Of a stretch of DNA of 64,000 nt, positions 14,501-62,755 are shown in pieces. The notes beneath the pieces were generated by a model. That model did no database searches. It worked only from the letters and a program-made list of their open reading frames with translations, and was not told the DNA's origin. The DNA is from a virus. The translations under genes and the position numbers were made by a program. Within the stretch, counting starts at the first letter, position 1, and each line of letters opens with the position of its first letter. The stretch lies in IMG/VR virus record IMGVR_UViG_3300020172_003394, positions 22,229 through 86,228 of that record; one strand, written 5' to 3'.

Positions 14501-14509
14501 TAAATATCT

Positions 14510-14581
14510 GCCACAATAGCTCAGCGGTAGAGCACTCGATTTGTAATCGAGCGGTCGTCGGTTCAATCCCGACTTGTGGCT
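14510..14581 (+). tRNA. tRNA-Thr (anticodon TGT)
   Basis: Acceptor GCCACAA/TTGTGGC, anticodon stem CTCGA/TCGAG with loop TTTGTAA, T arm GTCGG-TTCAATC-CCGAC, ordinary class I variable loop. It contrasts with the class II-shaped Thr-anticodon tRNA at 4299. Confidence 0.95.
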
Positions 14582-14606
14582 CTTAAATAAAACCAAACAT
14601 ACTTGA

Positions 14607-24371: not shown

Positions 24372-24941
24372 ATGAAGATTATCCGATTAGAACAACTTAT
24401 TCGTGAAGTTGTCGAAGAAACCTTGCAGAACAAATCTAAAGCAGGTGAAGAAGCAAAGCGTCAAGGACTTACAAATTTAAAATTTGGTAGGTGGGGTAAA
24501 GAAATTGATGGTAAAATGACAACAACGCACGTGTCACAGAACGGAAAATTGGTTGCTGTTAAAAAATCCGCACCCACCGCAAAAGGTAAAGTATCAACTG
24601 GTGCAAATCCGACACGCCAAGCCACCAAAACCGTCGCAGCCAAAAAAATAGATTCTGTAGCCAACAAATTATATAGACAATATGACCGTGATGGTGACCA
24701 CGATGATAGATATAGTGGTGTACACGCCGCCACGACAGTTATTACACACAAAAATCCATCTAATGCAGAGGAACTATACAAATTGATTGATGCAATGGTA
24801 ACTGCTACAGAAAAAAGAGATGATAAAGACGGAACAATTACTCCGGATGAGTGGTTTCAAGGCGTATATGATTTTCGAGATAAATACCAAAAAACTCTTA
24901 ATGACCCCACATCAACGCGCATTAAAGATGGGACTAACTGA
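24372..24941 (+). CDS. Putative internal virion protein with GLTNLKFGRWGK motif
   Basis: The 189-residue protein opens with an amphipathic peptide (MKIIRLEQLIREVVEE) like several proteins of the head module, followed by the phage motif GLTNLKFGRWGK. Two Asp-rich loops (DRDGDHDD near 114 and DDKDGTITPDEW near 150) recall EF-hands, though both depart from the consensus. The basic middle part and N-terminal tag suggest a capsid- or tail-associated protein. AAGGA precedes the ATG. Confidence 0.6.
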   Translation: MKIIRLEQLIREVVEETLQNKSKAGEEAKRQGLTNLKFGRWGKEIDGKMTTTHVSQNGKLVAVKKSAPTAKGKVSTGANPTRQATKTVAAKKIDSVANKLYRQYDRDGDHDDRYSGVHAATTVITHKNPSNAEELYKLIDAMVTATEKRDDKDGTITPDEWFQGVYDFRDKYQKTLNDPTSTRIKDGTN

Positions 24942-24998: not shown

Positions 24999-25346
24999 AT
25001 GGACAAGACATTATTAAAAGCATACATCAGAACCATCGTAGAAGAAGAAGTTACCAGAATTCTTCCTAATCTTCTAGGTGAAGCTGTGGCACAAATCAAA
25101 GGGACACAACAAGTTAACGAAACTGTCGTTACCCCAAGTAAGCCAAAGCTTGACCGTTCAAAGTTAGCAGCGATGATGGGATTGGAACGTCACGGAGACA
25201 CCATAACCGCTACCACAAAGAATATGGTTCTCCCAGAAAATATTCCACACGGGGTTAACTTAAATGACCCATCGGTAAAACCAGCGGTGGACGCTATCAC
25301 CAAGGATTATAGTGCTTTGATGAAAAAGATGGGATTAAGTAAATAA
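24999..25346 (+). CDS. Small virion-associated protein candidate
   Basis: The 115-residue protein has an amphipathic start (MDKTLLKAYIRTIVEEEV) of the same kind as the putative capsid-targeted proteins, a linker, and a C-terminal region with RSKLAAMMGLERHGD and YSALMKKMGL. CGGAGA lies nine bases upstream of the ATG. It immediately precedes gp25. Function unknown. Confidence 0.6.
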   Translation: MDKTLLKAYIRTIVEEEVTRILPNLLGEAVAQIKGTQQVNETVVTPSKPKLDRSKLAAMMGLERHGDTITATTKNMVLPENIPHGVNLNDPSVKPAVDAITKDYSALMKKMGLSK

Positions 25347-42257: not shown

Positions 42258-43172
42258 ATGAACCTAATATCTCTTTTATCGCAAATACTCGGTGACTACA
42301 AGCAAATGGGCAAGGGGGAGCATTACTTCTCCTGTCCGTTTTGCCATCATCACAATAAGAAGTTTGCGGTGAATGTTGTTAAGAATAAATGGAAGTGTTG
42401 GGTCTGTGGAGCACGGGGTCGGCATCTGATTGGATTGTTCAAGAAGTTGGATGTTTCACCAGCACAAATCAAAGAGCTGAAGAAGTGTCTGAATGAAGAT
42501 GATGTAAAGAGTTATGTGGATATAGACCCAAATGAAGTCGTGGAACTTCATTTACCTTACGAGTTTAAACCACTCTGGAAACCCACGAACACGTTCGAAT
42601 ACAAGCACGCAATCAATTACTTAAAGAAGCGTGGTATTACTGGATACGATATTATCCGTTATCGTATGGGATATTGTGAAACAGGTACATATGGTGGTCG
42701 TATCATCGTCCCGTCATATGATGTGGATGGAAAACTTAATTACTTTATTGCCCGTGCATATCACGAATCGGGTATGAAATATAAGAACCCACCAATCTCG
42801 AAGAATGTGGTGGTATTCGAGGAACAAATCAACTGGAACGAACCTGTTGTATTGGTGGAAGGTGTGTTCGATGCACTGGCGGTTCGTCGTAATGCAATCC
42901 CGATGTTGGGTAAGTTTATACCCAAGAAGTTAGAGGTCAAACTACTTGAAAATCGTGTGAAGAAGGTGTATATTCTTCTCGACGATGATGCAAAAACGGA
43001 AGCAATACAACTGGAACGCAAGTTATCAGCATATGGAATACAAGTATCACAAGTGTCGGTGAGTGGGGGTGACGCCGCTGACCTTGGGTTCCAAAAGACC
43101 TGGGAGTTTATTAATTACTCCAAGGCAACTACCTTTAAGGACTTTATACAAAATAGGTTATCAAACGCATGA
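42258..43172 (+). CDS. DNA primase (DnaG/gp61-type)
   Basis: The 304-residue protein has an N-terminal zinc finger (C26-x2-C29 and C47-x2-C50), then a TOPRIM core with VVLVEGVFDALA (Glu) and VYILLDDDAK (Asp cluster). It synthesises RNA primers for lagging-strand replication. It is slightly shorter than T4 gp61 (342). The stop overlaps the next ATG by four bases. No ribosome site is seen, so a leaderless mRNA or read-through from upstream are options. Confidence 0.9.
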   Translation: MNLISLLSQILGDYKQMGKGEHYFSCPFCHHHNKKFAVNVVKNKWKCWVCGARGRHLIGLFKKLDVSPAQIKELKKCLNEDDVKSYVDIDPNEVVELHLPYEFKPLWKPTNTFEYKHAINYLKKRGITGYDIIRYRMGYCETGTYGGRIIVPSYDVDGKLNYFIARAYHESGMKYKNPPISKNVVVFEEQINWNEPVVLVEGVFDALAVRRNAIPMLGKFIPKKLEVKLLENRVKKVYILLDDDAKTEAIQLERKLSAYGIQVSQVSVSGGDAADLGFQKTWEFINYSKATTFKDFIQNRLSNA

Positions 43173-46100
43173 ATATAAGTGTTCCATTTAATAAACTCAA
43201 AAAAATAATTCATCTCGCAGATATTCATATTCGATTATTTAAGCGACACGAAGAATATAACGAATGTTTCCAAACTTTCTATAACCAGTTGCGTCAAGAA
43301 GATTTGACCGACTCGGTTATTGTCGTTGCTGGTGATATCGTTCACGCTAAGACGGATATGAGTCCTGAGATGGTGGTGATGGCTACGGAGTTCTTGAAGA
43401 CGTTAGCGGATATGGCATCCACCATTATCATCGCAGGAAACCACGACCTCAACTTGTCCAATATGAATCGATTGGATAGTTTGACCCCAATCGTCAATAG
43501 TATCAATCATAAAGACCTCCATTACTTTAAGCACTCTGGTGTTTACACGATTGCCGACACCGACTTTGCTGTATATTCCATTCTTGATGACAAGGAGAAG
43601 TGGCCTTCCCACAGGGATTGTTCATCTCGTCGAAAGGTTGCTCTCTATCACGGACCTGTGTTCGGGGCAACGACAGATGCTAAGTATACCATTACTAATC
43701 GACATGTAGATGTGTCGGCGTTCAATGGATTTGATATGGTCTTACTTGGTGACATCCATAAGCATCAAGTATTACAAGAACGAGACGCAGAAAATAAGAA
43801 GCCCGTAGTAGTTTACGCATCATCACTCATCCAACAGAACCACGGTGAAAGTCTTGATAACCACGGGTGGTGTATGTGGGATGTCCATAACTGCACCTTC
43901 CAGTTCCGTCAACTTCCAAATAACTACGGATATTATACTGTTGAAGTCCAAGGTGGGAAAGTTCCAGTTCTAACTGATGTTCCTAACAATGTTCGTATGC
44001 GGATATTCACGGGGAACCTTGATACCTCCGCGGTCAAGAAGTTGACGGCAGTATTACGAAAGCAACATAATATCATTGAGTTGAGTATCAACAAGTCGCG
44101 ATATGATAGTAGTAATCGTGAGAAGATGAAGAGCGGTATCGAAATTATCGATGTTCAGAACATCAATAATCAGAATCAACTCATCCAAGATTGGTTGGAA
44201 CGACAATACGATAATACAATTGATAAACCATTGATGGACAAAATCTTGGATGTAAATAAGAACTTAAACGCACAAATCAATCACGACGACCATTCTCGTA
44301 ATGTGAATTGGCGTCCTCTCCAACTGAAGTTTTCGAATATGTTCTCGTATGGTGACGACAATATCATCAACTTTGGTAAGATGAAGGGGATATATGGTAT
44401 CTTTGCCAATAACGCATCGGGTAAGAGTTCTGCGATGGATGCCCTTATCTTTACCCTTTACGATAAGACTCCACGAGCATTTCGTGGTGACCATATAATG
44501 AATAATAGGAAGGACACGTTTACCTGCCAGTTAAAGTTTGAAATCAACAATGAAATCTTCTATATCCGTAGAACAGGCACCCGTAAAAAGACGGGTGATG
44601 TAAAGGTTGATGTCTCATTCTGGCGGGAGAACGAGGACGGAACCCACGAGTCATTAAATGGTGAGGACCGCCGTGATACGAATGTCAACATCAGAAACTA
44701 TGTTGGAACCTACGAAGATTTCGTCCTAACTGCACTCAGTAGTCAGAATAGTAATGCTTTATTCATTGATAAGTCTCATAGTGAACGCAAAGACCTGCTT
44801 ATCCAGTTTATGGGATTAAGTATCTTTGACAAGTTATGTGACACCGCTAATGACGAGATGAAGGAAATCTCTGGGGCACTTCGTAAGTTTAAGAAGGTCG
44901 ATTTCTCTCAGACTTTATCCGATACACAAAGTAAGTTAGACGCCACCCGTGAGGAACACGAACGGGTAGAAGGGTTGTTCTCTAAGATTAAACAGGAACA
45001 GGAAACCCTCTACGAGAAGTTAAAGGGATTACAGGAACAAAAACGACCTGTCCCTAATATCGAACTGGATATTGATACCCTCTTATCTACGAAGGATAAG
45101 GTGGTCGAGCTTGCGGCATCCTACGAAGAAGATAAGGGTGAAGCAGAAGGACGATTACAATATATTCACGATACAATCGCAGAGAAAACAAAGGAAGTAG
45201 TGGATGCAAATATTCCAGAACTTCGAAACTCTGTTGAAGAATATAATAGATTATCTGACCTCTTTAATAAGGGTAGTAATGCCTTGAAGTTAACCACATC
45301 GAAGATTGGGGAAAAGGTAAAGTTCCAAATCAAACTCGACAGTTACAAGTATAATCCAGATTGTGATGTCTGTGTTGACAACAATAAATCAATTATCTCA
45401 GATAAACAACAAGTAGCACACGAGTTATTGGAGTTAGAAGAGGTGCGAATCAAGCAGACAGCTGCCATTGAAGAAATCAAACAGCAGATGGAACCCCTGG
45501 TTGATAAGGTCAATCTCTGTGCATACTACGAGAAGATACAGAGTGAAGTCCAACAACTCCAGAAGAAGGCAAGCGGGATTGAACTTGACATCCAGAAGAT
45601 ATTGACCAACATCGAAAAGTGTGACCGCAAGCGTGAGCAAGTGGAAAACGACATCGAACTTCATCGATCAAACAAAGAAAATATTGAATACAATATTGAG
45701 ATAGACAGTCGTGTTGACCATATCCAATATGACATCAATACATCCAAAAAGAAGGCTGACCATATGGAAAAGGTGGTTCGTGACTTGCATGGTGAAATCA
45801 AGGTCTTAGAAGCCACCAAGACAGACATTATGAACCAGATTAAGGAAGCGGAAGAGTTAGAAGCAACCTACGAGGCATACAAGTATTATATGGAAGCGGT
45901 TGGTCGTGATGGCATTCCATATGACTTGATGAGTAAGGCAATCCCGAACATTGAAGCTGAAATAAATAATATTTTAAGTCAAATCGTAGACTTCACCATC
46001 TCCCTCGAAGTGGATGGAAAGAACATCGTCGGTAAGTTAAACTACGATTATGACCGCGTATGGCCGTTGGAAAACTCATCGGGCATGGAACGTTTTATTA

Positions 46101-46348
46101 GTAGTCTGGCAATCCGTGTTGCCCTGATGAACGCATCCAACCTTCCAAAGTCCAATTTCTTGATTATTGACGAAGGATTGGGGACATTAGACGCAGAAAA
46201 TATGACTTCGATGCATACCTTATTCGGTATCTTGAAAGCACAATTCGATTTCCTTATCGTTATCAGCCATTTGGATGTGGTTAGAGATATGGTCGATAAT
46301 TTAATTGAGATAAAAAGAGAAGACGGATTCTCGTATATCCAGTCGTGA
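43169..46348 (+). CDS. Fused SbcD-SbcC (gp47-gp46) recombination nuclease
   Basis: The 1059-residue chain joins two proteins that are separate in T4. Residues 1-340 are a Mre11/SbcD-type phosphoesterase (D18 and H20 in LADIHIR, GDIVH, AGNHDLN). From about 385 on it is an SMC-like Rad50/SbcC ATPase: Walker A ANNASGKSS (K419), long coiled coils around a zinc hook CDVC (C732, C735), signature SSGMERF and Walker B LIIDEG (D1001, E1002). The complex resects DNA ends for recombination-dependent replication. The fusion fixes a 1:1 ratio. Confidence 0.93.
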   Translation: MNISVPFNKLKKIIHLADIHIRLFKRHEEYNECFQTFYNQLRQEDLTDSVIVVAGDIVHAKTDMSPEMVVMATEFLKTLADMASTIIIAGNHDLNLSNMNRLDSLTPIVNSINHKDLHYFKHSGVYTIADTDFAVYSILDDKEKWPSHRDCSSRRKVALYHGPVFGATTDAKYTITNRHVDVSAFNGFDMVLLGDIHKHQVLQERDAENKKPVVVYASSLIQQNHGESLDNHGWCMWDVHNCTFQFRQLPNNYGYYTVEVQGGKVPVLTDVPNNVRMRIFTGNLDTSAVKKLTAVLRKQHNIIELSINKSRYDSSNREKMKSGIEIIDVQNINNQNQLIQDWLERQYDNTIDKPLMDKILDVNKNLNAQINHDDHSRNVNWRPLQLKFSNMFSYGDDNIINFGKMKGIYGIFANNASGKSSAMDALIFTLYDKTPRAFRGDHIMNNRKDTFTCQLKFEINNEIFYIRRTGTRKKTGDVKVDVSFWRENEDGTHESLNGEDRRDTNVNIRNYVGTYEDFVLTALSSQNSNALFIDKSHSERKDLLIQFMGLSIFDKLCDTANDEMKEISGALRKFKKVDFSQTLSDTQSKLDATREEHERVEGLFSKIKQEQETLYEKLKGLQEQKRPVPNIELDIDTLLSTKDKVVELAASYEEDKGEAEGRLQYIHDTIAEKTKEVVDANIPELRNSVEEYNRLSDLFNKGSNALKLTTSKIGEKVKFQIKLDSYKYNPDCDVCVDNNKSIISDKQQVAHELLELEEVRIKQTAAIEEIKQQMEPLVDKVNLCAYYEKIQSEVQQLQKKASGIELDIQKILTNIEKCDRKREQVENDIELHRSNKENIEYNIEIDSRVDHIQYDINTSKKKADHMEKVVRDLHGEIKVLEATKTDIMNQIKEAEELEATYEAYKYYMEAVGRDGIPYDLMSKAIPNIEAEINNILSQIVDFTISLEVDGKNIVGKLNYDYDRVWPLENSSGMERFISSLAIRVALMNASNLPKSNFLIIDEGLGTLDAENMTSMHTLFGILKAQFDFLIVISHLDVVRDMVDNLIEIKREDGFSYIQS

Positions 46349-48815: not shown

Positions 48816-51620
48816 ATGTATATGGATATTAATAAACTATTTGAACAAGTGATGGCATTAGATGATTATGTAGAACAACATAATTTTTTGGTCACACAGC
48901 TTGCTCCATCATTAAAAAATGAATTGGTGATTACACACACCGATACGTTAGAAGAAGCAAAACGTAAGCGTAAGAAGGCAAAAGAAAAGATTAAACGATA
49001 CGGATTTTTCTATCCATTATATCCTCGTGTAATTAAAACTGGTGAACAGCCAAAAGACGAACCAACAACACCACCAACGGAACCAACCGATAGTGGTGAT
49101 GCTGGTGGTGTGGACGAAATTAAACCACAAAACAAAGACAACGCATTTGCATATCCCTATTCACTTGGTCCGGAGCATGATGATGAATTCATACAGAAGG
49201 AAGCATTGTCAAGTACGGAACGTATGCGGAGATACAATCGTCGTCATCCCGAAAAGGTTCGAAAGTACCTTAAAAAAACTCAAGATGACCGTGTTGCCCG
49301 TAACCGTGACCGTAAGAAAGCAGTAAAGAAATACGGCAAATCAAAGATGAAAAACCATGATGTGCATCATCCAAATGGTGCAAAGAATGGTAAATGGAAG
49401 TTGGCAAAGAAAGACCACGGACGAGACAAGAAGAACGAAAATATAGAATATGTATATCTCTCCGAATTATTAGAAGGCAATGTACCAAATGGTCCGTGGC
49501 AATTAATCAACGAAGGTGGTGCTGCGGGACATTTAGCACATCCATACGAAGATGATAGTTTGACATTTAAAGATATGAAGGAAATGGCAAAACGTGGGTT
49601 GGTAGGTGGACTGGATGCAGAAGCACCGGTAACAGAAAAACTTGACGGACAGAATATTACGTTTAGTGTTCGTGATGGGCGTGTTGTGTTTGCTCGTAAT
49701 AAAGGTCAAGTCAAGAATCGTGGTAAAAATGCCTTGGATGTTGCAGGCATCCGAGGTATGTTTAAGGGGCATCCAAGTCCAAATATAGAAAAAGCATTTA
49801 ACCAAACTGCAGAAGATATCCAATCAGCAATCGACGCTCTACCAGAAGAACAAAGACAACAAATGTTCGGAGAAGGTAGTAAGTTTATGAATGTGGAAAT
49901 TATCTTTCCAGATACAAAGAACGTCATTCCATATGGAAAACCGGTATTAGTATTTCACGGAACTATTGAATACGATGAAGAAGGTGAAGAAGTTGGTCGT
50001 AATGTAGAAGATGCAAAATTGTTAGACCAACAATTGCAAGCCGTTAGTGCACAAAAACAACGTACATTCGGTTTGTCAGGTCCACAACCGATTACGTTTA
50101 ACGATGCAGATACAGTTCGTAATAAGGAACGACTACAACAATATGGGGCAGAAATGGCTCGTATTCAAGAAGAGTTTGACCTTGATGATAACTCAACATT
50201 GGAAGAATATAAAACTGCGTGGTGGAGTAGAGAAATTGACAATATGGGTGTAGATTGGACTCCTGAAGAACGTGAAGGTTTAATTCGTCGTTGGGTAATG
50301 GGAGAAAAGAAATTCGGGGTCAAAGACATCCAAGATGCAGAAAAGAAAAAGTTTTTTCGTGAATACGAAGCAACCGAATTAAAACAAGCACAGAAGAAAG
50401 CAACTCGTCCAATTGAACGTATCTTTCTACGAATTGGTGCAGATACATTATTACGTGTTACCAATACTCTTGGAGCTAATAATCCGGAGATGGCATCTCA
50501 GTTAAAGCAAGAAGTTAAAGATGCAATACAAAAAATTAAAGAAACTGGTGATGAGAACCAATTAGCTATGTTGCAAAGAGAAATTGAACGATTGGAAGAC
50601 ATAGGTATTGATAGTGTTGTACCAAGTGAAGGGTTGGTGTTTATTTATAACGGCAAACCATATAAATTTACCGGAGCATTTGCGCCAGTTAATCAAATGT
50701 TAGGTATGATGAAATTTGCAAGAGGCAAGGCAAAGGAAGTAGAAGAACCAAAAGAAAAACCAGCAGAAAAAACTGTAGAAAAACCACAAGTGTCTCCGAC
50801 TGGTGAAAAAAGAAGAGTGGCAATTTTCCCTGGTCGTTTTCAACCATTTCACGCCGGACATTACAGTATTTATAAAAAATTAGCAAATGAATTTGGTGAA
50901 GATAATGTGTATATTGTATCAAGTGATGTGACTGACCCAACTCGGTCACCATTTGGATTTGACGAAAAGAAACAAATAATGACACAGATGTTTGGTATTC
51001 CCGAAGATAAAGTAGTACAAGTCAAGAGTCCGTATGCACCAAAAGAATTGACAGCAAATCTACCACCAGATACTACCACCGTATTTGCACTGAGTGAAAA
51101 AGACGCAGATAGATTGGGTACTGGTAAGTATTTTCAACCATATGACCAACAATCATCAAACGCAGGATTTAGTGAAAAGGGATATGTGATGATTGCCCCA
51201 GAAATGCAATTACAATTAGACGGTAGAAATATTAGTGGAACCCAAGTTCGTGCATTATTGGGTAATCCAAAAATTACTGATGAAATGAAGAAAGAAATCT
51301 TTACAAAAATATATGGTAAGTTTGACCCAGAAATATTTAAAAAGATTGTAAAAACCACTACTGATTCTGAAGAAGCATTACGATTAACACAACAACATGG
51401 TACGGATGCAGAACCAAAACCATCAGTAAAAAAGAAACAAGTAGTAAAGAAACCTGTATCAAAACAAACGGCAGCAGAAAAACCACCAACCGATCCATCG
51501 TTTTATAAACCTGGGCAATCTTGGGAAACGGATACTGGAAACTTTGGTGGTAAGAATAGAAAGAATCAAGTACGATATTTTAAAACAAAAGACCGAGCTG
51601 ATAAGTTCGCTAAATTATAA
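48816..51620 (+). CDS. Multidomain ligase-like/NMN adenylyltransferase-like protein
   Basis: The 934-residue protein (start 48816, or better 48822 by ribosome-site spacing) has several parts. It opens with an amphipathic N-terminal peptide (MDINKLFEQVMALDDYV), then a basic region with an HNH-like stretch (HDVHHPNG, residues 181-188). A covalent nucleotidyltransferase core with EKLDGQN (Lys275) and VFARNKGQ follows, as in RNA/DNA ligases. The C-terminal part has GRFQPFHAGH (673-682) and NISGTQVRALL, as in NadM/NadR-type NMN adenylyltransferases. Ligase and NAD-forming activities in one chain suggest nucleic-acid end repair or NAD-linked modification. Functions are inferred from motifs only. 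Confidence 0.7.
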   Translation: MYMDINKLFEQVMALDDYVEQHNFLVTQLAPSLKNELVITHTDTLEEAKRKRKKAKEKIKRYGFFYPLYPRVIKTGEQPKDEPTTPPTEPTDSGDAGGVDEIKPQNKDNAFAYPYSLGPEHDDEFIQKEALSSTERMRRYNRRHPEKVRKYLKKTQDDRVARNRDRKKAVKKYGKSKMKNHDVHHPNGAKNGKWKLAKKDHGRDKKNENIEYVYLSELLEGNVPNGPWQLINEGGAAGHLAHPYEDDSLTFKDMKEMAKRGLVGGLDAEAPVTEKLDGQNITFSVRDGRVVFARNKGQVKNRGKNALDVAGIRGMFKGHPSPNIEKAFNQTAEDIQSAIDALPEEQRQQMFGEGSKFMNVEIIFPDTKNVIPYGKPVLVFHGTIEYDEEGEEVGRNVEDAKLLDQQLQAVSAQKQRTFGLSGPQPITFNDADTVRNKERLQQYGAEMARIQEEFDLDDNSTLEEYKTAWWSREIDNMGVDWTPEEREGLIRRWVMGEKKFGVKDIQDAEKKKFFREYEATELKQAQKKATRPIERIFLRIGADTLLRVTNTLGANNPEMASQLKQEVKDAIQKIKETGDENQLAMLQREIERLEDIGIDSVVPSEGLVFIYNGKPYKFTGAFAPVNQMLGMMKFARGKAKEVEEPKEKPAEKTVEKPQVSPTGEKRRVAIFPGRFQPFHAGHYSIYKKLANEFGEDNVYIVSSDVTDPTRSPFGFDEKKQIMTQMFGIPEDKVVQVKSPYAPKELTANLPPDTTTVFALSEKDADRLGTGKYFQPYDQQSSNAGFSEKGYVMIAPEMQLQLDGRNISGTQVRALLGNPKITDEMKKEIFTKIYGKFDPEIFKKIVKTTTDSEEALRLTQQHGTDAEPKPSVKKKQVVKKPVSKQTAAEKPPTDPSFYKPGQSWETDTGNFGGKNRKNQVRYFKTKDRADKFAKL

Positions 51621-54475: not shown

Positions 54476-54634
54476 ATGATTAAATTAGTTGATATTTTAC
54501 TAAACGAAAAATGGACAAAGAAGTATAAAAAGTCCATAAATTGTAGTAATCCGAAGGGGTTCAGTCAAAAAGCACATTGCGCTGGACGTAAAAAGCGTAA
54601 ACGTGGGGTTAAAACAACGTCAAAACCGGTATAA
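54476..54634 (+). CDS. 52-residue basic protein with GFSQKAHCAGRKK motif
   Basis: It starts MIKLVDILLNEKW, the N-terminal peptide shared by several proteins here, then carries NCSNPKGFSQKAHCAGRKKRKRG. That motif, recalled from other large phages, has two Cys and many Lys/Arg. It is probably an internal, DNA-associated head protein. TGG lies upstream; no strong ribosome site. Confidence 0.65.
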   Translation: MIKLVDILLNEKWTKKYKKSINCSNPKGFSQKAHCAGRKKRKRGVKTTSKPV

Positions 54635-54637
54635 AAT

Positions 54638-54937
54638 ATGACCAAAGATGAACTTTTAGAAATGATTCGTGAAGAATTAGCAGTAGTTCTTCAAGAAATG
54701 CAAAAACCAGAAGAACAAGAGCTTGACGAACGTACCGTTGCAAGTCGTGAACCTCCACGTAAAATGAATAAGAAGCAAGTAACAAAGCGTGATAAAGTTG
54801 GTAAGACATTATTGAAGAACAAGCGTTCTGTTCGTTATTTCAAGGATAAGTTTGGTGACGATTGGAAATCATACCTCTATGCTACAGCAACAAACAAAGC
54901 AATCGCTGGTAAGAAAAAGAAAGGCGAGAAGAAATAA
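54638..54937 (+). CDS. Small basic head-module protein
   Basis: The 99-residue protein has an acidic amphipathic N-terminus (MTKDELLEMIREELAVVLQEMQ) and a basic C-terminus ending GKKKKGEKK, with RSVRYFKDKFGDDWKSYLYATATNKA, a recurring phage motif. The charge split suits an internal head protein with a targeting peptide and a DNA-binding body. Starts three bases after the previous stop. Confidence 0.65.
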   Translation: MTKDELLEMIREELAVVLQEMQKPEEQELDERTVASREPPRKMNKKQVTKRDKVGKTLLKNKRSVRYFKDKFGDDWKSYLYATATNKAIAGKKKKGEKK

Positions 54938-54939
54938 TA

Positions 54940-55236
54940 ATGGATTATAAAGAATTTTATACAACCATTTACGAAGATTGTGGATGCGGACAAACAGAAG
55001 CGTATCCTTGGGGTGGATTTAATGCTACCAAGAGTGACTTCGAAGATCCACGTTTACAAAAGGCAGAGGAAATCTCGGCACTATTAGAAAAGAGTATTCC
55101 AACCAATCCGTCAAAGTGGGCAACTGCGAAAGCAGCAGCAAAACGAAAGTTTAAAGTGTACCCATCGGCATACGCCAACTTGTGGGCAGCAAAAAAGTAC
55201 AAAAGTATGGGTGGTGGCTGGAAAAAAGGAAAGTAA
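54940..55236 (+). CDS. DUF5824-like head-module protein
   Basis: The 98-residue protein starts MDYKEFYTTIYEDCGCG and ends with NPSKWATAKAAAKRKFKVYP, then SAYANLWAAKKYKSMGGGW. I associate this C-terminal block with phage domain DUF5824. It is basic and probably packed in or on the head. It begins two bases after the previous stop. Confidence 0.7.
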   Translation: MDYKEFYTTIYEDCGCGQTEAYPWGGFNATKSDFEDPRLQKAEEISALLEKSIPTNPSKWATAKAAAKRKFKVYPSAYANLWAAKKYKSMGGGWKKGK

Positions 55237-55258
55237 ATAAATATTTTGGAGAAGTGAT

Positions 55259-55681
55259 ATGATTAGATTAACAGGATTAGTTAACTTAAAAGCAGTTGGT
55301 TCAAAACCTATCGGTTCAACCGTTAAGGAAGAATTAACAGGCAAGCAAACGAAACTTGACGTTGATGGTGACGGAAAGTTGGAAAAGTCCGACTTTGAAA
55401 AACTTCGTGCACAAAAAGAAGAAATTGGACCAAAAGACCAAGTTGATTCTGGTGAATATGATTACGAAGGTGATATGGCAAAGAATCAATTACAAACAAT
55501 CATCAGAAATGCACAAATGTTGCATGACATGTTAGATGATCAAACTAACCTTCCTGAATGGGTACAAAGCAAGATTACTTTGGCTAAAGAATATACGCAA
55601 TCTGCAGCGCAATACCTTAGTAGTGAAAAGGACCAAACCAGTACGGCGGGTGAGATTCCAACATCGTCGGAAAAAATGTAA
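55259..55681 (+). CDS. EF-hand-bearing head-module protein
   Basis: The 140-residue protein starts MIRLTGLVNLK. A canonical EF-hand loop DVDGDGKLEKSD (34-45) should bind calcium. The C-terminal EGDMAKNQLQTIIRNAQMLH and NLPEWVQSKITLAKEY form a helical bundle motif that I recognise from other phage virion genes. TTGGAG precedes the ATG. Internal or surface head protein, function unknown. Confidence 0.65.
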   Translation: MIRLTGLVNLKAVGSKPIGSTVKEELTGKQTKLDVDGDGKLEKSDFEKLRAQKEEIGPKDQVDSGEYDYEGDMAKNQLQTIIRNAQMLHDMLDDQTNLPEWVQSKITLAKEYTQSAAQYLSSEKDQTSTAGEIPTSSEKM

Positions 55682-56043
55682 TGGAAACTGTAGCGAAATT
55701 TTTGTCTACACTATTCAATAGTCGTGACCAAGCACATATCTTCCATCTCCAAACATCATCGTATGCTGCTCACAAGGCATTAAATTCATATTATGATGAT
55801 ATAGTAGATTTAATAGATAGTTACGCAGAAACTTGCCAAGGTCGTTATGGAATTATCCGTGGTTACACTCCACAACGTCAATACTTCGAAGGTGATGAAA
55901 CTGTGAAATACTTTACTGGATTATCAACCTATATTGACAGCGTTAGAAGTTCATTACCACAAGATAGTGATCTCAATAATGTTGTGGATGAAATATCGGC
56001 ATTGGTTAATTCGACAATTTACAAGTTGAAGTTCTTAAAGTAA
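55681..56043 (+). CDS. DUF5856-like helical protein
   Basis: The 120-residue protein overlaps both neighbours by start-stop contact. NSRDQAHIFHLQTSSYAAHK and ALNSYYDDIVDLIDSYAE are the DUF5856 hallmark, a four-helix, ferritin-like small phage protein with His and Glu residues. Metal or DNA binding like Dps is possible but not shown. Confidence 0.75.
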   Translation: METVAKFLSTLFNSRDQAHIFHLQTSSYAAHKALNSYYDDIVDLIDSYAETCQGRYGIIRGYTPQRQYFEGDETVKYFTGLSTYIDSVRSSLPQDSDLNNVVDEISALVNSTIYKLKFLK

Positions 56044-56369
56044 TGAAATTACAAGATATTTTAGTTGAACTTACCGAAGAAATTTTGGATGAGAAGTATA
56101 AGCCAAAAGGTGAATTGGGTAAGTGGTTGAAGCAAAAATGGGTGGATATTTCTAGAAAAGATCCAAAAACTGGAAAGCATCCACCGTGTGGTGCTTCGGC
56201 AGGAAAGAAAGAACGTAAAGGTGGTTCAGCCAAATATCCAAAATGTAGACCAGCTCGCTCCGCTGCAGCAATGAGTAAAGGAGAAAAGCGGTCAGCAGTA
56301 ACTAGAAAGAGAAAAGCAGGAAATCCAGGTGGAAAACCAACAATGGTTTCTACCTTTAAAAAGAAATAA
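56043..56369 (+). CDS. DUF5872-like basic protein
   Basis: The 108-residue protein starts MKLQDILVELTEEILDE, an amphipathic tag. It continues with KKW..-type WVDISRKDPKTGKHPPCG, KYPKCRPARSAAAM and KRSAVTRKRKAGNPGGKPT, the DUF5872 signature, strongly basic with two or three Cys. It probably binds DNA inside the capsid after cleavage of the tag. Start overlaps the previous stop. Confidence 0.72.
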   Translation: MKLQDILVELTEEILDEKYKPKGELGKWLKQKWVDISRKDPKTGKHPPCGASAGKKERKGGSAKYPKCRPARSAAAMSKGEKRSAVTRKRKAGNPGGKPTMVSTFKKK

Positions 56370-56392
56370 AACTCTTGACTTTGAGAGCAACA

Positions 56393-56947
56393 ATGATTAG
56401 ATTAACTGATCTTCTATGCGAAGATTGCTGGGACGGATACAAGCAAGTTGGTATGAAGGAAAAGAACGGTAAGATGGTTCCCAACTGCGTTCCAGTAGAA
56501 GAACTTTATCATCGTCCAGAAAGTGATGTTACATCGGATAGTGATTTCAAGCCAGACCAAGATAATAAGCGTGACCAATTTGGTTCTGAATCGGCTGATG
56601 AACTAACCGAAGGTGAATTCTGTAATGAATGTCTTATAGAAGTTCTTGAAGAATTACACGAAAACCAACTTGGTGAAGCAGAATATCGTGGTCGTAAAGT
56701 TTCTCTCGGTAAGATTATGAGAGGTGATGTTAAAAAATTTAAAGTGTTTGTTCGTGACCCAAAGAGTGGAAACATTAAGAAAGTAAATTTCGGTCATGGT
56801 GGAACTTCGGCAAAACGCCGCGGTGAAAAGACTATGAAAATTAAAAAAAATATCCCTTCTCGTCGTAAGTCGTTCCGTGCAAGACATAATTGTGATAACC
56901 CAGGTCCAAGAACAAAAGCTCGTTACTGGGCATGTCGTACCTGGTAA
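56393..56947 (+). CDS. Basic head-module protein with FRARHNCDNPGP motif
   Basis: Using the ATG at 56393 (184 residues), the protein starts MIRLTDLLCEDCWDGY, has an acidic middle and ends with a basic region (RRKSFRARHNCDNPGPRTK, then ARYWACRTW). I recall that ending from many large phages. Cys residues may bind zinc. The N-terminal tag and basic end fit an internal protein processed by the prohead protease. Confidence 0.68.
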   Translation: MIRLTDLLCEDCWDGYKQVGMKEKNGKMVPNCVPVEELYHRPESDVTSDSDFKPDQDNKRDQFGSESADELTEGEFCNECLIEVLEELHENQLGEAEYRGRKVSLGKIMRGDVKKFKVFVRDPKSGNIKKVNFGHGGTSAKRRGEKTMKIKKNIPSRRKSFRARHNCDNPGPRTKARYWACRTW

Positions 56948-56948
56948 T

Positions 56949-57272
56949 ATGAAAAAGAAAATTTCACGAGAACAATCTGATAAGATATTAGATAAAATGG
57001 GTTATAAGTTTAATCCAACAGAATTCTTCTTAGGAATGAATGTTGAGTTAGAACATCAAGATGTGACCAACGGAAATGTGGTTAAGACTGCAAAAATCGC
57101 AGCAGCACATCTGAATGAAAATCCAAAGTATTATTCGTTATTAATGAAGCATGTTGAGAAGCCAAAGAAAGAACAATTAGTTGGACCTGGTGGGGCAATC
57201 AACGCAGCACCAAAACCACAAGATGTTAAGAAAATGCGAACAGCATTGGATAGGGAGAAGAAACATGATTAA
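56949..57272 (+). CDS. DUF5661-like protein
   Basis: The ATG right after the previous stop gives 107 residues. FFLGMNVELEHQDVTNGN and AKIAAAHLNENPKYYSLLMKH match the DUF5661 pattern of small phage proteins. Function unknown. Its end overlaps the next gene start by eight bases. Confidence 0.72.
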   Translation: MKKKISREQSDKILDKMGYKFNPTEFFLGMNVELEHQDVTNGNVVKTAKIAAAHLNENPKYYSLLMKHVEKPKKEQLVGPGGAINAAPKPQDVKKMRTALDREKKHD

Positions 57273-57615
57273 GCTCACAGATTTGATTTTGGAAGCAGGT
57301 AAGGAAAATCGTATTAATTCAATGCGTTTGGTCGCATTACTTGAAAAGTTGATGCCTTCCTTAAAGGAAGCACAACAAAACCAACTTACTGAATTAACTG
57401 CACAAGTATTGGAAGGTATCACACGTGTTAATGAAATGCCATACAACTATAACACAATGTCAGAATGGCATATGACTGAATTAGCAACTGTGGTGATGCC
57501 GGTTCGTGATTTACGTAATAAGCTAACAGAATTACAAAAAAAACCAACAAAAAATATGGATGTTACAACGATTGAAATGGTCATTAAGGCAATCGATGAA
57601 TTATACATCTACTAA
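57265..57615 (+). CDS. Helical head-module protein with targeting-like N-terminus
   Basis: From the ATG after GGGAGAAG the protein has 116 residues. It opens MIKLTDLILEAGKENR, nearly the same as the 54476 and 56393 products, with LILE fitting an L/I-x-E cleavage site. The rest is helical. It precedes the portal gene by 14 bases. Confidence 0.65.
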   Translation: MIKLTDLILEAGKENRINSMRLVALLEKLMPSLKEAQQNQLTELTAQVLEGITRVNEMPYNYNTMSEWHMTELATVVMPVRDLRNKLTELQKKPTKNMDVTTIEMVIKAIDELYIY

Positions 57616-57629
57616 CAAGTTGAGGGGTT

Positions 57630-59561
57630 ATGGCAGATAATAGTATATTCGGCAGACTGAAAAAACTCTTTTCCACTAACACAGTAGTTCGTAATGTTGG
57701 TGGGAAACGTTTAAAGGTAGCTGATACAGACAATATCCAATCATTTATTAACAGACGCGGTATTGATAGATACCATCGCGTCTATTCGTCTATGACTGGT
57801 GGATATGGTGCATCAGGTGGCCGATACGAAGCGGCCGCAGCATTCCAAGGATCACGATTACAATTGTTCCGTGATTATGATATGATGGATAATGACCCTA
57901 TTATCTCTTCGGTGATGGACATCTATGCCGACGAATCAACGGTAAAAGATGAATTCGGTAATATTCTTACCATTAACTCAAAAAATACACAAATTCAAGA
58001 AATTCTTCATAACTTATTCTATGATGTATTGAATATCGAATTCAATCTCTGGCCATGGGTCAGAAACATGGCAAAGTATGGGGATTTCTTTTTGTATTTG
58101 GACATCGACCCAGAATATGGTGTTGTAAATGTTCTTCCGTTGTCTGTTTATGAAACTATTCGTATCGAAGGACAAGACCCAGGCAATCCATTTTCGGTCA
58201 AGTTTAAAATTGAAAATGACTTCTTAAGTCTGGGAAAAACAGAATTTGACAATTATGAAATTGCACACTTTCGTCTATTGTCTGATACCAATTTCCTTCC
58301 ATATGGAAAGGCAATGATAGAAGGTGGTCGTCGTGTCTGGAAGCAGCTTCAATTAATGGAAGATGCGATGTTAATTCATCGTATCATGCGTGCAGCAGAT
58401 AAGCGTAAGATTCTTGTAGACATTGGTAATATCCCACCAGCAGAAATTGATACCTTTATGAATCGTATCATTGACCGTATGAAGAAGATTCCACTAGTTG
58501 ATCCAGCAACAGGTGATTATAATCTTCGTTATAATATGCAAAACATCACAGAAGATTTCTATCTTCCTGTTCGTGGTAAGGATTCTGGAACAGATATTCA
58601 AAATCTTCCTGGGTTACAATTCAACGCTATTGAAGATATCGAATACCTCCGTAACAAGTTAATGGCGGCATTCAAGGTACCAAAGGCGTTTATGGGATAC
58701 GAAGAAGACCTTAGTGGTAAGGCAACCTTGGCGGCACAAGATGTTCGTTTCGCACGTACCATAGAACGCATTCAACGTATTATGGTATCAGAATTGACAA
58801 AGATTGCAATCGTACATTTATATGTTCAAGGATTTACCGATGAAGATTTAATTGACTTTGAATTATCATTAACTAATCCGTCTATTGTTCTTGAACAAGA
58901 AAAATTGAATTTGTGGAAAGAAAAAATTGGTGTTGCAGAACAAATTACAGGAAGTAAGTTATTATCACAAGAATGGATATATCATCACATTCTTGAATTA
59001 TCCAATGATGAAATTCAAGAAGAACGTAAGAAGATACAAGAAGATGTAAAACGAATGGCAGAACTAGAACAAATGTCCCAACCACCACAACCAGGAGCAG
59101 TACCAGCAGGGGTACAACCAGGTGAAGCGCCAGTAGGTGAAGAACCAGCACCGGAAGGTGAACCGTTGAGTCAAGACCAAGAAGAGCAACAACTTGATGA
59201 TATAGACTCTATCCTAGCTTCATTAAAACCTGATGGGGAAGAAGAAAGTGAATTAGAAGGTGAACCATTACCAGATGAAGAATTGGAAGAAGGTAAAATG
59301 GGACGGCCAACAGTTGGTCAAAAGTACGGGCAAGATAGTCATCCACGAGGTCGTGACCCACTCGGACACGAAGAAAATATGGGATCGTTGACTGTAAGAA
59401 AACAACGTAATGACAAAAGAAAGTCACCACTTGCGTTAACCAAAGAAATTCAAGCGTTGATGGCAAATATAAAGAAACCAACAAAGAAAGTATTAATGGA
59501 AGAAGTAGAACCAACAGGTTCGATGTTAGACGAAAGTAATATTTTGGACATCGAAAACTAA
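57630..59561 (+). CDS. gp20: Portal vertex protein (gp20)
   Basis: The 643-residue protein matches T4-type portals: DNDPIISSVMDIYADEST near residue 85, VLPLSVYETIRIEG, PYGKAMIEGGRRVWKQL, AFKVPKAFMGYEEDLSGKATLAAQD in the stem and clip. The C-terminal 130 residues are acidic, Pro/Glu-rich and longer than usual. The dodecamer is the packaging channel and assembly start of the head. Good GAGGGG site upstream. Confidence 0.95.
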   Translation: MADNSIFGRLKKLFSTNTVVRNVGGKRLKVADTDNIQSFINRRGIDRYHRVYSSMTGGYGASGGRYEAAAAFQGSRLQLFRDYDMMDNDPIISSVMDIYADESTVKDEFGNILTINSKNTQIQEILHNLFYDVLNIEFNLWPWVRNMAKYGDFFLYLDIDPEYGVVNVLPLSVYETIRIEGQDPGNPFSVKFKIENDFLSLGKTEFDNYEIAHFRLLSDTNFLPYGKAMIEGGRRVWKQLQLMEDAMLIHRIMRAADKRKILVDIGNIPPAEIDTFMNRIIDRMKKIPLVDPATGDYNLRYNMQNITEDFYLPVRGKDSGTDIQNLPGLQFNAIEDIEYLRNKLMAAFKVPKAFMGYEEDLSGKATLAAQDVRFARTIERIQRIMVSELTKIAIVHLYVQGFTDEDLIDFELSLTNPSIVLEQEKLNLWKEKIGVAEQITGSKLLSQEWIYHHILELSNDEIQEERKKIQEDVKRMAELEQMSQPPQPGAVPAGVQPGEAPVGEEPAPEGEPLSQDQEEQQLDDIDSILASLKPDGEEESELEGEPLPDEELEEGKMGRPTVGQKYGQDSHPRGRDPLGHEENMGSLTVRKQRNDKRKSPLALTKEIQALMANIKKPTKKVLMEEVEPTGSMLDESNILDIEN

Positions 59562-59624
59562 AGTCTTATTAATATTCGTTATATTTAATATATGACGGTA
59601 TATTGTCACTAAAATGGGATGTTT

Positions 59625-60503
59625 ATGAAAGCAAACGTCAAGCATAACAAAATTCGGAATACGGGCATACTATTTGAACTATTAGTCCGTAAAATAACCT
59701 CAGACACGTTGGATAACCGTAGTAATGATACTGCGGTGAAACTAATGAAAGAATATTTCAATTCGAAAACCGAACTTGGTAAAGAATTAATACTCTATCG
59801 TTCGTTTTTCAATGCACAACAACTTAGTGAAACTAAGGCATTTGAACTCCTCAACGTATTGATATCACAACGTAAGAAATTGAATGAAATAGCATTAAAT
59901 ACACAAAAATACAAGTTAATTCGTGAAATCAAAAATAACTATGATTTAAAAGAATTTTTAAATGCTCGCATTCCGTCCTACAAAGTTTATGCTTCTGTAT
60001 ATAAAGTATTTGACAGTGTAGTGAACGAAATCCAAGATTTCAATGAAATTGAAGGTATGGTTGAAGCAAAGTTTACCATCGTCGAACATTTAAGTGGCAA
60101 AATGATTAGTAAGGAAATTAAAAACGATACCGTACTATATGAAACTGTGAAGGGTCAAGAAGAAGATTTACGTTTATTGACCTACAAGATTTTGATGGAA
60201 AAATTCAACCAAAAGTATGTTGGATTAAACGATCGTCAAAAAGACCTTCTTCGTGAATATATTTATAATGTGTCGAACTCAGTAGCACTCCGTACTTATG
60301 CAACAAATATGGCAAAAGAACTCGTTAAAGAAATTAAATTAAAATTACCACGGTTAGATAATAAAATAACCAAAATTAAATTGGCAGAAGTTGTTGTGCA
60401 ATTAGAAAAAATCAAAACTGTGCAAATCGTGAAAGAAAATCATATGACTGCACTTCTCATTGCCTTGGAAATTACCAAGACATTAGACACTTTAAAGAGT
60501 TAA
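59625..60503 (+). CDS. Head-module protein, prohead core candidate
   Basis: The ATG at 59625 (six bases after GGGA) gives 292 residues; an in-frame ATG at 59619 is also possible. The protein is helical and Lys-rich (NTGILFELLVRKITSDTL, QKDLLREYIYNVSNSVALRTY) without membrane segments. Lying between portal and prohead protease, it takes the position of T4 core genes 67/68 but is larger. Function inferred from position only. Confidence 0.65.
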   Translation: MKANVKHNKIRNTGILFELLVRKITSDTLDNRSNDTAVKLMKEYFNSKTELGKELILYRSFFNAQQLSETKAFELLNVLISQRKKLNEIALNTQKYKLIREIKNNYDLKEFLNARIPSYKVYASVYKVFDSVVNEIQDFNEIEGMVEAKFTIVEHLSGKMISKEIKNDTVLYETVKGQEEDLRLLTYKILMEKFNQKYVGLNDRQKDLLREYIYNVSNSVALRTYATNMAKELVKEIKLKLPRLDNKITKIKLAEVVVQLEKIKTVQIVKENHMTALLIALEITKTLDTLKS

Positions 60504-60506
60504 TTT

Positions 60507-61004
60507 ATGGACAAGAAGGAAGCACTTCGTAAGGCAATACGTGAATTAATCAAAAAAGAACTTGATGAAATGACCACAACGGGAAATGTAGCTGGATATC
60601 TTACTCCATACGCATTTCGTGGTAACAAGTCTGGCGCAAAAGATAGAGTTAAAAATATTGCAACGACAAGCACTGGATTCGAATTAACTCCAAAAGGCAA
60701 GAAACAATTTGACGAACCCGCAGACAAAATGGAAATTGTCAAGAAAAAATTGTCCGAAAACAAATATTACGAATATAAGAATGATCCTACAAAGTCTCCA
60801 CATCAAAAAATTGCAGAAGCAATTTCGCAACTTAATAAAAATTTAGAAGAAGTTGAAAAGATGATTCGGATGAACGCACGTTTAAAGACAGAATCAGGAA
60901 TAGCAGGTGAACAATTATGGAAGCGTACCCAAAAGGGAATGTTAAAACTCGAAGCAAGACTTCTTGGTTTGGCAACACGTATCCGTGAAATTCGTGGACA
61001 ATAA
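60507..61004 (+). CDS. Head-module protein with amphipathic N-terminus
   Basis: The 165-residue protein begins MDKKEALRKAIRELIKKELDEM and has a middle TPYAFRGNKS, then a C-terminal coiled coil (AEAISQLNKNLEEVEKMIRM). Between the core candidate and protease it may be a scaffold or internal protein. The N-terminal tag carries L-x-E-like sites. Starts three bases after the previous stop. Confidence 0.65.
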   Translation: MDKKEALRKAIRELIKKELDEMTTTGNVAGYLTPYAFRGNKSGAKDRVKNIATTSTGFELTPKGKKQFDEPADKMEIVKKKLSENKYYEYKNDPTKSPHQKIAEAISQLNKNLEEVEKMIRMNARLKTESGIAGEQLWKRTQKGMLKLEARLLGLATRIREIRGQ

Positions 61005-61005
61005 T

Positions 61006-61593
61006 ATGCAAACACTACTCGTAGAATATAATGTTATCTCTTATGATAACGGATTGTTGATGGAAGCAGCAGACACTTCAAAACCATTAATTTTGAAGGA
61101 CGTTGTGTTACAACGTGCTGACCACAAGAACCAAAATGGTCGTGTCTATCCAAAAGAAATTTTAGCACGTGAGGCAATGACATACAAGAATAACTTTGTG
61201 TCGCAACGTAGAGCATTGGGTGAACTTGACCACCCAGAAAGCCCAGTTGTTAATTTAAAAAACGTCTGTTGCAATGTAACTGACTTGTGGTTTGAAGGTC
61301 AAGATGTTGTTGGTAATATAGAAATTTTATCTACCCCATCAGGAAATATTGTTCGTGAACTTATCAAAAACAATATCCGATTGGGTGTTTCATCCCGTGG
61401 TATGGGTTCTGTTAGATCAATTGGAGAAAATACTGTCGAAGTTGGTGATGACTTTGCATTGATTTGCTTTGATATCGTCAGCAATCCAAGTACTCACGGT
61501 GCATTTATCAACGAAAACCAGGGTGGACAAATAATCACCCCCTATAGTCGTATTGATACCTTGATTTACGACTTTTTAGGCGAACTAAAATAA
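61006..61593 (+). CDS. gp21: Prohead core protease (gp21-like)
   Basis: From the ATG directly after the previous stop the protein has 195 residues. Catalytic His76 lies in GELDHP and Ser129 in GVSSRGMGS, the serine protease pair of T4 gp21 and related herpesvirus-fold proteases. It degrades the scaffold and trims head proteins after [LI]xE-like sites before packaging. Its own N-terminus would be removed by self-cleavage. Confidence 0.93.
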   Translation: MQTLLVEYNVISYDNGLLMEAADTSKPLILKDVVLQRADHKNQNGRVYPKEILAREAMTYKNNFVSQRRALGELDHPESPVVNLKNVCCNVTDLWFEGQDVVGNIEILSTPSGNIVRELIKNNIRLGVSSRGMGSVRSIGENTVEVGDDFALICFDIVSNPSTHGAFINENQGGQIITPYSRIDTLIYDFLGELK

Positions 61594-61603
61594 GGAGTTT
61601 TTT

Positions 61604-61897
61604 ATGACAACAGTTTTGGTAGTATTGTTCGTGTTAGCAGTTGCAATCTATTTTCTTAACCTTAAAGCAATGGCAGCACCATCACCTTTGTTAAAGGCAA
61701 CCAAGAAGGTTGAAGCAACTATTGTTAAGGCAGTTGATGTTAATGGTGACGGTAAAATTGATTTGGCCGACGCGGTTGCGGTAGTCAAAGCAGTTGAAAA
61801 AACTGGTAAGGTAGCAGTCAAGGCAGTTGAAAAAACTGGTAAATCGGTTGTTAAGAAAGCAAAAAAAATAACAACCACAAAGAAAAAAACTAAGTAA
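61604..61897 (+). CDS. EF-hand/dockerin-like protein with membrane segment
   Basis: The 97-residue protein has an N-terminal hydrophobic helix (3-19), one canonical calcium loop DVNGDGKIDLAD (45-56) as in dockerin and EF-hand proteins, two copies of KAVEKTGK and a Lys-rich tail. AAGGAG precedes the ATG. A membrane-anchored, calcium-binding peptide within a head cluster is unusual. Function unknown. Confidence 0.65.
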   Translation: MTTVLVVLFVLAVAIYFLNLKAMAAPSPLLKATKKVEATIVKAVDVNGDGKIDLADAVAVVKAVEKTGKVAVKAVEKTGKSVVKKAKKITTTKKKTK

Positions 61898-61902
61898 TTT
61901 AT

Positions 61903-62271
61903 ATGCGACTTAAAACTTTATTAAATGAAAACATCACAAATGAATTTGTAAAGTTTGTCGCTAAAGAGCTAGAACTTGAATCACTACCGACGAAAATCAA
62001 ATTCGTCGGTAGTGACTATTCAAAAGAAAATATGACCTTTGGAACATACAATGTTCAAACCGACGAAATTATTATTGTTAAAGGAAATCGTCATATTGCT
62101 GATGTATTAAGAACATTAGCACACGAAATGGTACATCATAAACAACGACAAGCAGGTAAGGACATGAATGGTGAAGATGGGTCGCCATTAGAAAATGAAG
62201 CAAACGCAAAGGCAGGAGAATTGATGCGTAAGTTTCGTTATATACGACCAGAATTGTATCAGGAGAGATAG
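61903..62271 (+). CDS. HExxH zinc metallopeptidase-like protein
   Basis: The 122-residue protein has LAHEMVHH (H74, E75, H78) and a downstream ENEAN (E97/E99) as third ligand region, the minimal zinc peptidase plan (SprT/gluzincin-like). It starts MRLKTLLNENITNEF, like the tagged head proteins, so it may be packaged. A target could be host protein or peptidoglycan peptide; unknown. Confidence 0.75.
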   Translation: MRLKTLLNENITNEFVKFVAKELELESLPTKIKFVGSDYSKENMTFGTYNVQTDEIIIVKGNRHIADVLRTLAHEMVHHKQRQAGKDMNGEDGSPLENEANAKAGELMRKFRYIRPELYQER

Positions 62272-62272
62272 G

Positions 62273-62755
62273 ATGCCATCAGTCAGTAAAGCACAACAAA
62301 AACTTTTTGGAATTGTACACGCAATCCAAACAGGAAAAGCAAAGGCCAGTGATTTTAGTCCCGCGGCTCGTAAATTAGCAAAAACTATGGCAAAGGGTAG
62401 TGTGACGAAATACGCATCTACTCCATCCAAACATTTACCAAATAAAAAGGATGAAGTTGCAGGAGCAATTCCTGCATCAGACATGCCCGTTGCATCGGAT
62501 GATATGACACCAACTGTATCAAATGACCCTACATATGTTTCGTTTGATGAGAATTATAGTGAAAAACAAAGTCAAATACTGAGCATTGTAAAAGATAAGA
62601 AACCAGCAGAAATTGACGGAACGTTGGTAGATATCTACACCGCAGCGTTACTAACTAAGGTATTACACAAATTAGCACCCGAAAACCGTAAGAAAATGTT
62701 AGCTCTTCCTATGGAAAAAATGGTGGCCGCCGCATATAAGTTAGTAACCCGATAA
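62273..62755 (+). CDS. DUF3008-like protein
   Basis: The 160-residue protein starts with MPSVSKAQQKLFGIVHAIQ, followed by KLAKTMAKGSVTKYASTPSKHLP. This matches the DUF3008 pattern of small phage proteins that often sit in head clusters. The C-terminal helical half is additional. The ATG follows the peptidase stop by one base, after GGAGAG. Confidence 0.75.
   Translation: MPSVSKAQQKLFGIVHAIQTGKAKASDFSPAARKLAKTMAKGSVTKYASTPSKHLPNKKDEVAGAIPASDMPVASDDMTPTVSNDPTYVSFDENYSEKQSQILSIVKDKKPAEIDGTLVDIYTAALLTKVLHKLAPENRKKMLALPMEKMVAAAYKLVTR

What the first reader, a model, noticed from the sequence alone, without database searches (positions are those of the whole stretch)
54476..62271. Shared N-terminal peptide marks a family of putative capsid-targeted proteins
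Products at 24372, 24999, 48816, 54476, 54638, 55259, 56043, 56393, 57265, 60507 and 61903 begin with M-(I/K)-(K/R)-L-x-(D/Q)-(L/I)-like amphipathic peptides with L/I-x-E sites; 54940 is weaker. T4 internal proteins carry a comparable capsid targeting sequence cut by gp21, and a gp21-like protease lies at 61006. The bodies are mostly basic. This predicts a large injected protein arsenal, including a peptidase and a ligase-NMNAT protein.
Basis: partly seen in the sequence, partly recalled or inferred. Interest (0 to 1): 0.74.

Follow-up and report, generated by a model that had tools for sequence, protein, structure and literature searches.

The report
Cleavable capsid tags on phage proteins
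An uncultured T4-like water phage appears to put short cleavable address tags, like the one T4 uses to load proteins into its head, on about nine unrelated small proteins, which suggests it carries a cargo of proteins into its host along with its DNA.

Summary
The tag is real for most of the listed genes. In seven related contigs it marks 36/131 genes of the head block, 3/639 elsewhere and 0/665 internal Met positions; shuffled N-termini give 1.4. Two more listed genes (60507, 24999) carry a second, helical tag type. 48816 (ligase-NMNAT) and 55259 do not fit; 54940 is weak, as stated.

The leaders end in [LI]xE sites with fixed P3/P1 and variable P2, the same motif as at the aligned mature cleavage site of the relatives' major capsid protein. 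The bodies of 56043 and 56393 occur without any leader in 10 phages lacking a Peptidase_S77; the 56393 body has one in every S77 phage examined. L4 and E10 are among six near-invariant residues of the 57265 family.

Best reading: T4-type propeptides that recruit proteins to the prohead core and are removed by the gp21-like protease. Packaging and cleavage are inferred; injection is less certain. The mechanism is known from T4; the array, the second tag type and a possible alternative C-terminal module are new.

The parts
54476..54634 (+). 52-aa very basic protein with type-A leader MIKLVDILLNE|KW (predicted cut after E11)
   Evidence: strict T4-derived pattern; family of 56 loci, commonest leader MIKLVDILLTE
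54638..54937 (+). Basic 99-aa protein with type-B leader, predicted cut LDE31|RTVA
   Evidence: pattern; type-B leave-one-out; body-anchored P1 E 28/28
54940..55236 (+). DUF5872-like basic body with weak aromatic leader MDYKEFYTTIYE
   Evidence: DUF5872 below curated cut-off; leader variants in relatives
56043..56369 (+). Basic Cys-containing protein; leader MKLQDILVE, second site LDE17|KY at the body start
   Evidence: pattern; second site 31/31; bare homologues in S77-less phages
56393..56947 (+). Leader MIRLTDLLCE|DCW and second site LGE95|AEYRG at the C-terminal domain start
57265..57615 (+). Helical 116-aa protein with leader MIKLTDLILE|AG
   Evidence: pattern; L4 and E10 near-invariant; detached low-confidence N-terminal helix in the model
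60507..61004 (+). Type-B leader ending LDE21|MTTTGNVAGY; between portal and protease, in the place of T4 gp67/gp68; probable core protein
   Evidence: leave-one-out; LxE 66/66; [LI]xE enriched
61006..61593 (+). gp21-like prohead protease (Peptidase_S77)
   Evidence: PF03420 2.9e-26; phrog_207 1.4e-48; aligned H and S at T4 residues 85 and 140
61903..62271 (+). HExxH metallopeptidase with type-A leader MRLKTLLNE
   Evidence: pattern; invariant H74 E75 H78; model resembles SPRTN and minigluzincins
24372..24941 (+). Type-B-like leader MKIIRLEQLIREVVEETL; no homologue among the relatives fetched
24999..25346 (+). Type-B-like N-terminus, but next to baseplate genes: doubtful member
59619..60503 (+). 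Untagged protein between portal and protease, rich in [LI]xE: probable core protein
   Evidence: 11-13 sites vs 5-6 expected, p 0 to 0.009 in 1000 shuffles for three homologues
62273..62755 (+). DUF3008 protein whose C-terminal ~65 aa (...YKLVTR) is fused to the untagged peptidase in relatives
   Evidence: PF11450
56949..57272 (+). DUF5661 body, untagged here, tagged in relatives G004 and L132
55259..55681 (+).
48816..51620 (+). Cytidylyltransferase-like (NMNAT) protein with weak RNA-ligase match; tag not supported
   Evidence: PF01467 3.3e-8, PF09414 0.009 below cut-off

Best explanation
The leaders are cleavable capsid targeting propeptides of the T4 kind. Each small protein is made with an N-terminal amphipathic leader: type A, about 9-11 residues, roughly M-x-[KR]-L-x-D-[LI]-[LI]-x-E; or type B, about 15-30 residues, around an I-R-E-x-[IVL]-x-x-E-L helix. 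The leader docks the protein on the scaffolding core of the prohead. The gp21-like S77 protease at 61006 then cuts after [LI]xE and frees the mature body inside the shell, where it stays with the DNA. Shown: the tags, their positions, the sites and their conservation. Inferred: docking, cleavage and packaging. More weakly inferred: ejection of at least some bodies into the host.
For: T4-derived pattern in 36/131 head-block genes vs 3/639 others, 0/665 internal Met, shuffled mean 1.4; family level p = 5e-10; the same pattern recovers ipII, ipIII and gp24 in T4 (residue map from PMC9026906). Body-anchored sites with fixed P3/P1 and free P2, the motif also at the MCP position aligned to the T4 gp23 cut. 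Bare bodies in 10 S77-less phages; leadered 56393 bodies in this phage and four S77 phages. L4/E10 near-invariant in 57265; detached N-terminal helix in its model. Tag gain/loss on the same body. Tag codons agree only at chance level, so selection is on protein.
Against: No virion proteomics. S77 presence coincides with being T4-like, so the bare/leadered split is partly taxonomic. The pattern positions come from T4 but were applied after the tags had been seen. Scaffold [LI]xE density is not significantly raised. Other T4-like phages show the pattern less often (2-10 genes per genome). 24999 lies beside baseplate genes.
Confidence: 0.78

Rival explanations
1. The leaders are docking peptides for head assembly that are never cleaved; the proteins are structural parts of the capsid or core, not cargo.
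For: 60507 sits in the T4 gp67/gp68 position; the MCP itself has a tag-like N-terminus; docking would also confine the tags to the head block.
Against: Free P2 between fixed P3 and P1, with sites exactly at body starts; leaders vanish where S77 is absent.
Confidence: 0.12
2. The N-termini are alike because short late genes were copied or recombined with their start regions; the shared peptide has no function of its own.
For: The genes lie in tandem and several are short.
Against: Codon identity at shared residues is at chance level (18 of 36 vs 16.5 expected); L4/E10 conserved at 25-77% identity.
Confidence: 0.05
3. The similarity is chance among short amphipathic N-termini or wrongly chosen starts.
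For: Some starts have no clear ribosome-binding site; 48816 and 55259 do turn out not to fit.
Against: Enrichment over shuffles, internal Met positions and other genes; conservation over many related loci.
Confidence: 0.03

Closest known systems
T4 internal proteins IPI-IPIII with the capsid targeting sequence (PMC9026906, PMC3012670)
   Same: Short N-terminal leader with hydrophobics at residues 4 and 7, L/I at 8 and E at 10; cut motif [LI]xE; gp21-family protease in the genome; diverse bodies behind a shared leader
   Different: Aliphatic KLxDLL leader instead of KTYQEFI; genes clustered in the head block; about nine members here against three IPs in T4; a second helical leader type; packaging not demonstrated
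T4 gp24 propeptide (MAKINELLRE|S)
   Same: Almost the same residues as type A: K3, I/L4, E/D6, L7, L8, E10
   Different: gp24 is a shell protein of the vertices; the bodies here show no relation to it
T4 core proteins gp67/gp68
   Same: 59619 and 60507 lie between portal and protease and are rich in [LI]xE
   Different: No family match in the Pfam and PHROG scans
Head propeptides of giant phages phiKZ and SPN3US (PMC5694885)
   Same: Propeptides removed by a gp21-like protease after a short motif ending in E, many internal and ejected proteins
   Different: Most SPN3US propeptides are over 100 residues; phiKZ motif is S/A-x-E

Membership tests
T4-type CTS-bearing internal proteins | Short N-terminal leader with the targeting residues 4/7 and processing residues 8/10 | tested here: met
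   Type A and two type-B members: pattern hits 7 genes. Type B 60507 and 24999 are out of register
T4-type CTS-bearing internal proteins | Same leader on unrelated bodies | tested here: met
   Families fall in separate clusters and different or no Pfam/PHROG families
T4-type CTS-bearing internal proteins | gp21-family protease with [LI]xE specificity in the same phage | tested here: met
   PF03420; [LI]xE at the mature MCP site of relatives; own MCP lies beyond the contig end
T4-type CTS-bearing internal proteins | Leader cleaved and body present in the virion | not testable with these tools
   Needs virion proteomics
T4-type CTS-bearing internal proteins | Body ejected into the host | not testable with these tools
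   Needs an infection experiment
Peptidase_S77 (gp21) | Family profile score above the curated cut-off | tested here: met
   92.6 bits vs 27
Peptidase_S77 (gp21) | Catalytic His and Ser (T4 85 and 140; positions from memory) | tested here: met
   Both aligned in own, immuto and Mel-JY01 proteases
SprT/minigluzincin metallopeptidases (61903) | HExxH zinc motif and fold | tested here: inconclusive
   HExxH invariant; best fold hits SPRTN and selecase/jannalysin, TM by query 0.41-0.57, E 0.006-0.11; Peptidase_M78 below cut-off
RNA ligase-NMNAT (48816) as CTS cargo | Leader in the T4 register | tested here: not met
   MYMDINKLFEQ and homologues do not fit; the Mel-JY01 homologue MGKLINILLSE does

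The most novel reading that the evidence does not exclude
These phages have more than one head-entry address: the T4-like type-A leader, a distinct helical type-B leader, and a C-terminal ~65-residue module (...YKLVTR) that replaces the leader on the metallopeptidase. In 39 related loci the peptidase is long, untagged and carries this module, with no separate DUF3008 gene found; in 53 it is short and tagged, with the module on the separate DUF3008 protein. The module would then be an alternative targeting device.
Probability: 0.3. Interest if true: 0.65.

Novelty: new variant of a known kind. Interest (0 to 1): 0.56.

Why it matters
T4 internal proteins act in the first moments of infection (IPI inhibits a restriction enzyme, PMC3012670; IPIII is needed to infect strain ECOR17, PMC9391042). 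If the reading holds, a sequence rule taken from mapped T4 residues picks out head-cargo candidates in uncultured aquatic T4-like phages, including proteins of unknown function, and makes the list of likely injected proteins directly testable. It also offers new leaders to try for loading proteins into phage heads.

Tried and rejected
Nucleotide search against annotated phages found no relative. Leave-one-out PSSM over 550 families placed four type-A families within the top 1-8 but ranked 56393 low (63 above it), because part of that family has a 6-aa leader or a wrongly called start. 57265 body: no significant fold match in the PDB or viral libraries. 61903: no sequence match to solved structures. 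A tag swap on the 55259 body was considered and dropped, because the alternative start lies in an upstream fused EF-hand segment. [LI]xE enrichment in the scaffold was not significant. Recent DNA duplication of the tag was rejected: codon identity at chance level. No published virion proteome of a relative was found in the held library.

Full report
WHAT THE WINDOW IS. The window is the last 64 kb of an 86,228-base virus contig. It holds a T4-type head module: terminase 52850 (Terminase_6N), portal 57630 (Portal_T4, 4.4e-63) and a gp21-like protease at 61006 (Peptidase_S77, 2.9e-26). Protease and portal searches each returned 80 related viral loci. The nearest annotated records are Flavobacterium phage immuto and Microcystis phage Mel-JY01. 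The contig ends before scaffold and major capsid protein, which are seen in relatives (L013).

IS THE TAG REAL. I used a pattern taken from the published map of the T4 IPIII capsid targeting sequence: residues 4 and 7 for targeting, 8 and 10 for processing (PMC9026906). In words: hydrophobic at E-6 and E-3, L or I at E-2, E at residue 9-12. The positions come from T4, but the pattern was applied after the tags had been seen. Over seven contigs it marks 36 of 131 head-block genes, 3 of 639 others and 0 of 665 internal Met-started 15-mers; shuffling the same N-termini gives 1.36 on average and at most 6 in 2000 rounds. At family level, in an earlier run with slightly different block limits, it is 10/31 vs 2/308, p = 5e-10. 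In T4 the pattern recovers ipII, ipIII and gp24, and a few others such as gp2 and 61.1.

TWO TAG TYPES. Type A (MIKLTDLILE|AG and the like) is about 9-11 residues. Type B (MTKDELLEMIREEL..., MDKKEALRKAIRELIKKELDE|) is longer and helical. In leave-one-out scoring the four type-B families are outscored by only 4-5 of 551 families, all of which carry IIREEL-type leaders. Two listed genes fail: 48816 and 55259. 24999 fits type B but sits beside gp25- and gp6-like baseplate genes.

CLEAVAGE SITES. The relatives' major capsid protein has [LIV]xE|[AN] where the alignment places the T4 gp23 cut (E65|A66), with P1 E in all 41 distinct proteins matched. The same motif ends the leaders when they are anchored on the conserved body: 60507 P3 L and P1 E 66/66 with seven different residues at P2; 56393 second site L-[GQE]-E|A 41/41; its first site P1 E 34/35 even where the leader shrinks to MENITE|ACW; 56043 LDE|[KR]Y 31/31; 54638 P1 E 28/28. 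Fixed P3 and P1 with free P2 is what a short protease motif should look like. The MCP's own N-terminus (MSGVSEFINE|AG) fits the tag as well.

NATURAL EXPERIMENT. The bodies of 56043 and 56393 also occur in smaller phages. In the ten such records examined no Peptidase_S77 is found anywhere in the record, and the homologue starts at the body with no leader (Aegir MAKYQGRTV; HTVC023P MSLKKWFNEKW); in DSL-LC04 and 023Pt the gene is unannotated, and the open frame upstream of the body holds no tag-like leader. In S77-bearing phages the 56393 body is preceded by an extension ending at the same boundary: C48C1 LTE|AEYQGKK, HTVC008M LEE|AEFQGKK, immuto LDE|GEYRGKD, Melnitz-3 MME|SEYQGKD (inside a longer annotated protein), and here LGE|AEYRGRK. 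C48C1 moreover begins MKKFKQYIDE|G, close to the T4 sequence MKTYQEFIAE|A. The caveat is that S77 presence and T4-likeness go together. Over whole genomes the pattern is more frequent in four S77 phages (22/917 called genes) than in eight S77-less ones (4/629; p = 0.008).

CONSERVATION AND STRUCTURE. Across 57265 homologues at 25-77% identity only six columns are invariant or nearly so, and two of them are L4 and E10. The model has a separate N-terminal helix of low confidence (residues 6-13 below pLDDT 50) and a confident body from about residue 20. Codons in the tags agree no more than codon usage predicts (18 of 36, 16.5 expected), so the tags are not recent DNA copies.

MODULARITY. The body of 56949 is untagged here but tagged in G004 and L132 (MILLSHILSE|, MIRLRDLLTE|). 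The HExxH peptidase 61903 is short and tagged in 53 loci, with a separate DUF3008 gene. In 39 loci it is long and untagged, ends in the C-terminal region of that DUF3008 protein (49% identity over 65 residues), and no separate DUF3008 gene is found; five further loci scored 'long, untagged' look like miscalled starts. This may be a single clade-level event, but it suggests that the module can stand in for the tag.

MECHANISM. Most likely the leader docks the protein on the prohead core, the S77 protease cuts it at [LI]xE, and the body stays in the head with the DNA. In T4, bodies delivered this way include an inhibitor of a restriction enzyme (PMC3012670, PMC9391042). Docking, cleavage and packaging are inferred from conservation and from T4; ejection is a further inference. 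59619 and 60507, between portal and protease like T4 gp67/gp68 and rich in [LI]xE, are more likely core proteins than cargo.

VERDICT. The searches of the held paper library turned up no earlier description of such tags in this lineage; most subscription papers are not in that library.

Noticed in passing
window 61903-62755; L053:10582-11145: Tagged short peptidase plus DUF3008 protein in one group of relatives; untagged peptidase fused to the DUF3008 protein's C-terminal region in another, with no separate DUF3008 gene found.
   Followed up: partly
window 43169-46348: One 1059-aa ORF matches both SbcD (residues 11-371) and SbcC (294-1057) families: T4 gp47/gp46-like subunits apparently fused.
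   Followed up: no
window 48816-51620: 934-aa protein with cytidylyltransferase domain, a KLDG ligase-like motif and an upstream HNH-like stretch (HDVHHPNGAKNGKW): possibly a three-part enzyme.
   Followed up: no
window 2500-14582; L142 10467-10818: 29 tRNA genes in the window; the 148-kb relative also has a predicted tmRNA gene next to its tRNA array.
   Followed up: no
L175 (Flavobacterium phage immuto) 6295-29469: Further leader-like N-termini: MKKSQLR[EQ]II[RK]..., MENFDLKKFLVENKLT, and a RxQKLAGII motif both at the N-terminus of a small protein and at the C-terminus of the scaffold-position protein.
   Followed up: partly
window 55681-56043: DUF5856 / phrog_858 protein ('starvation-inducible transcriptional regulator'), untagged, inside the tagged cluster.
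   Followed up: no
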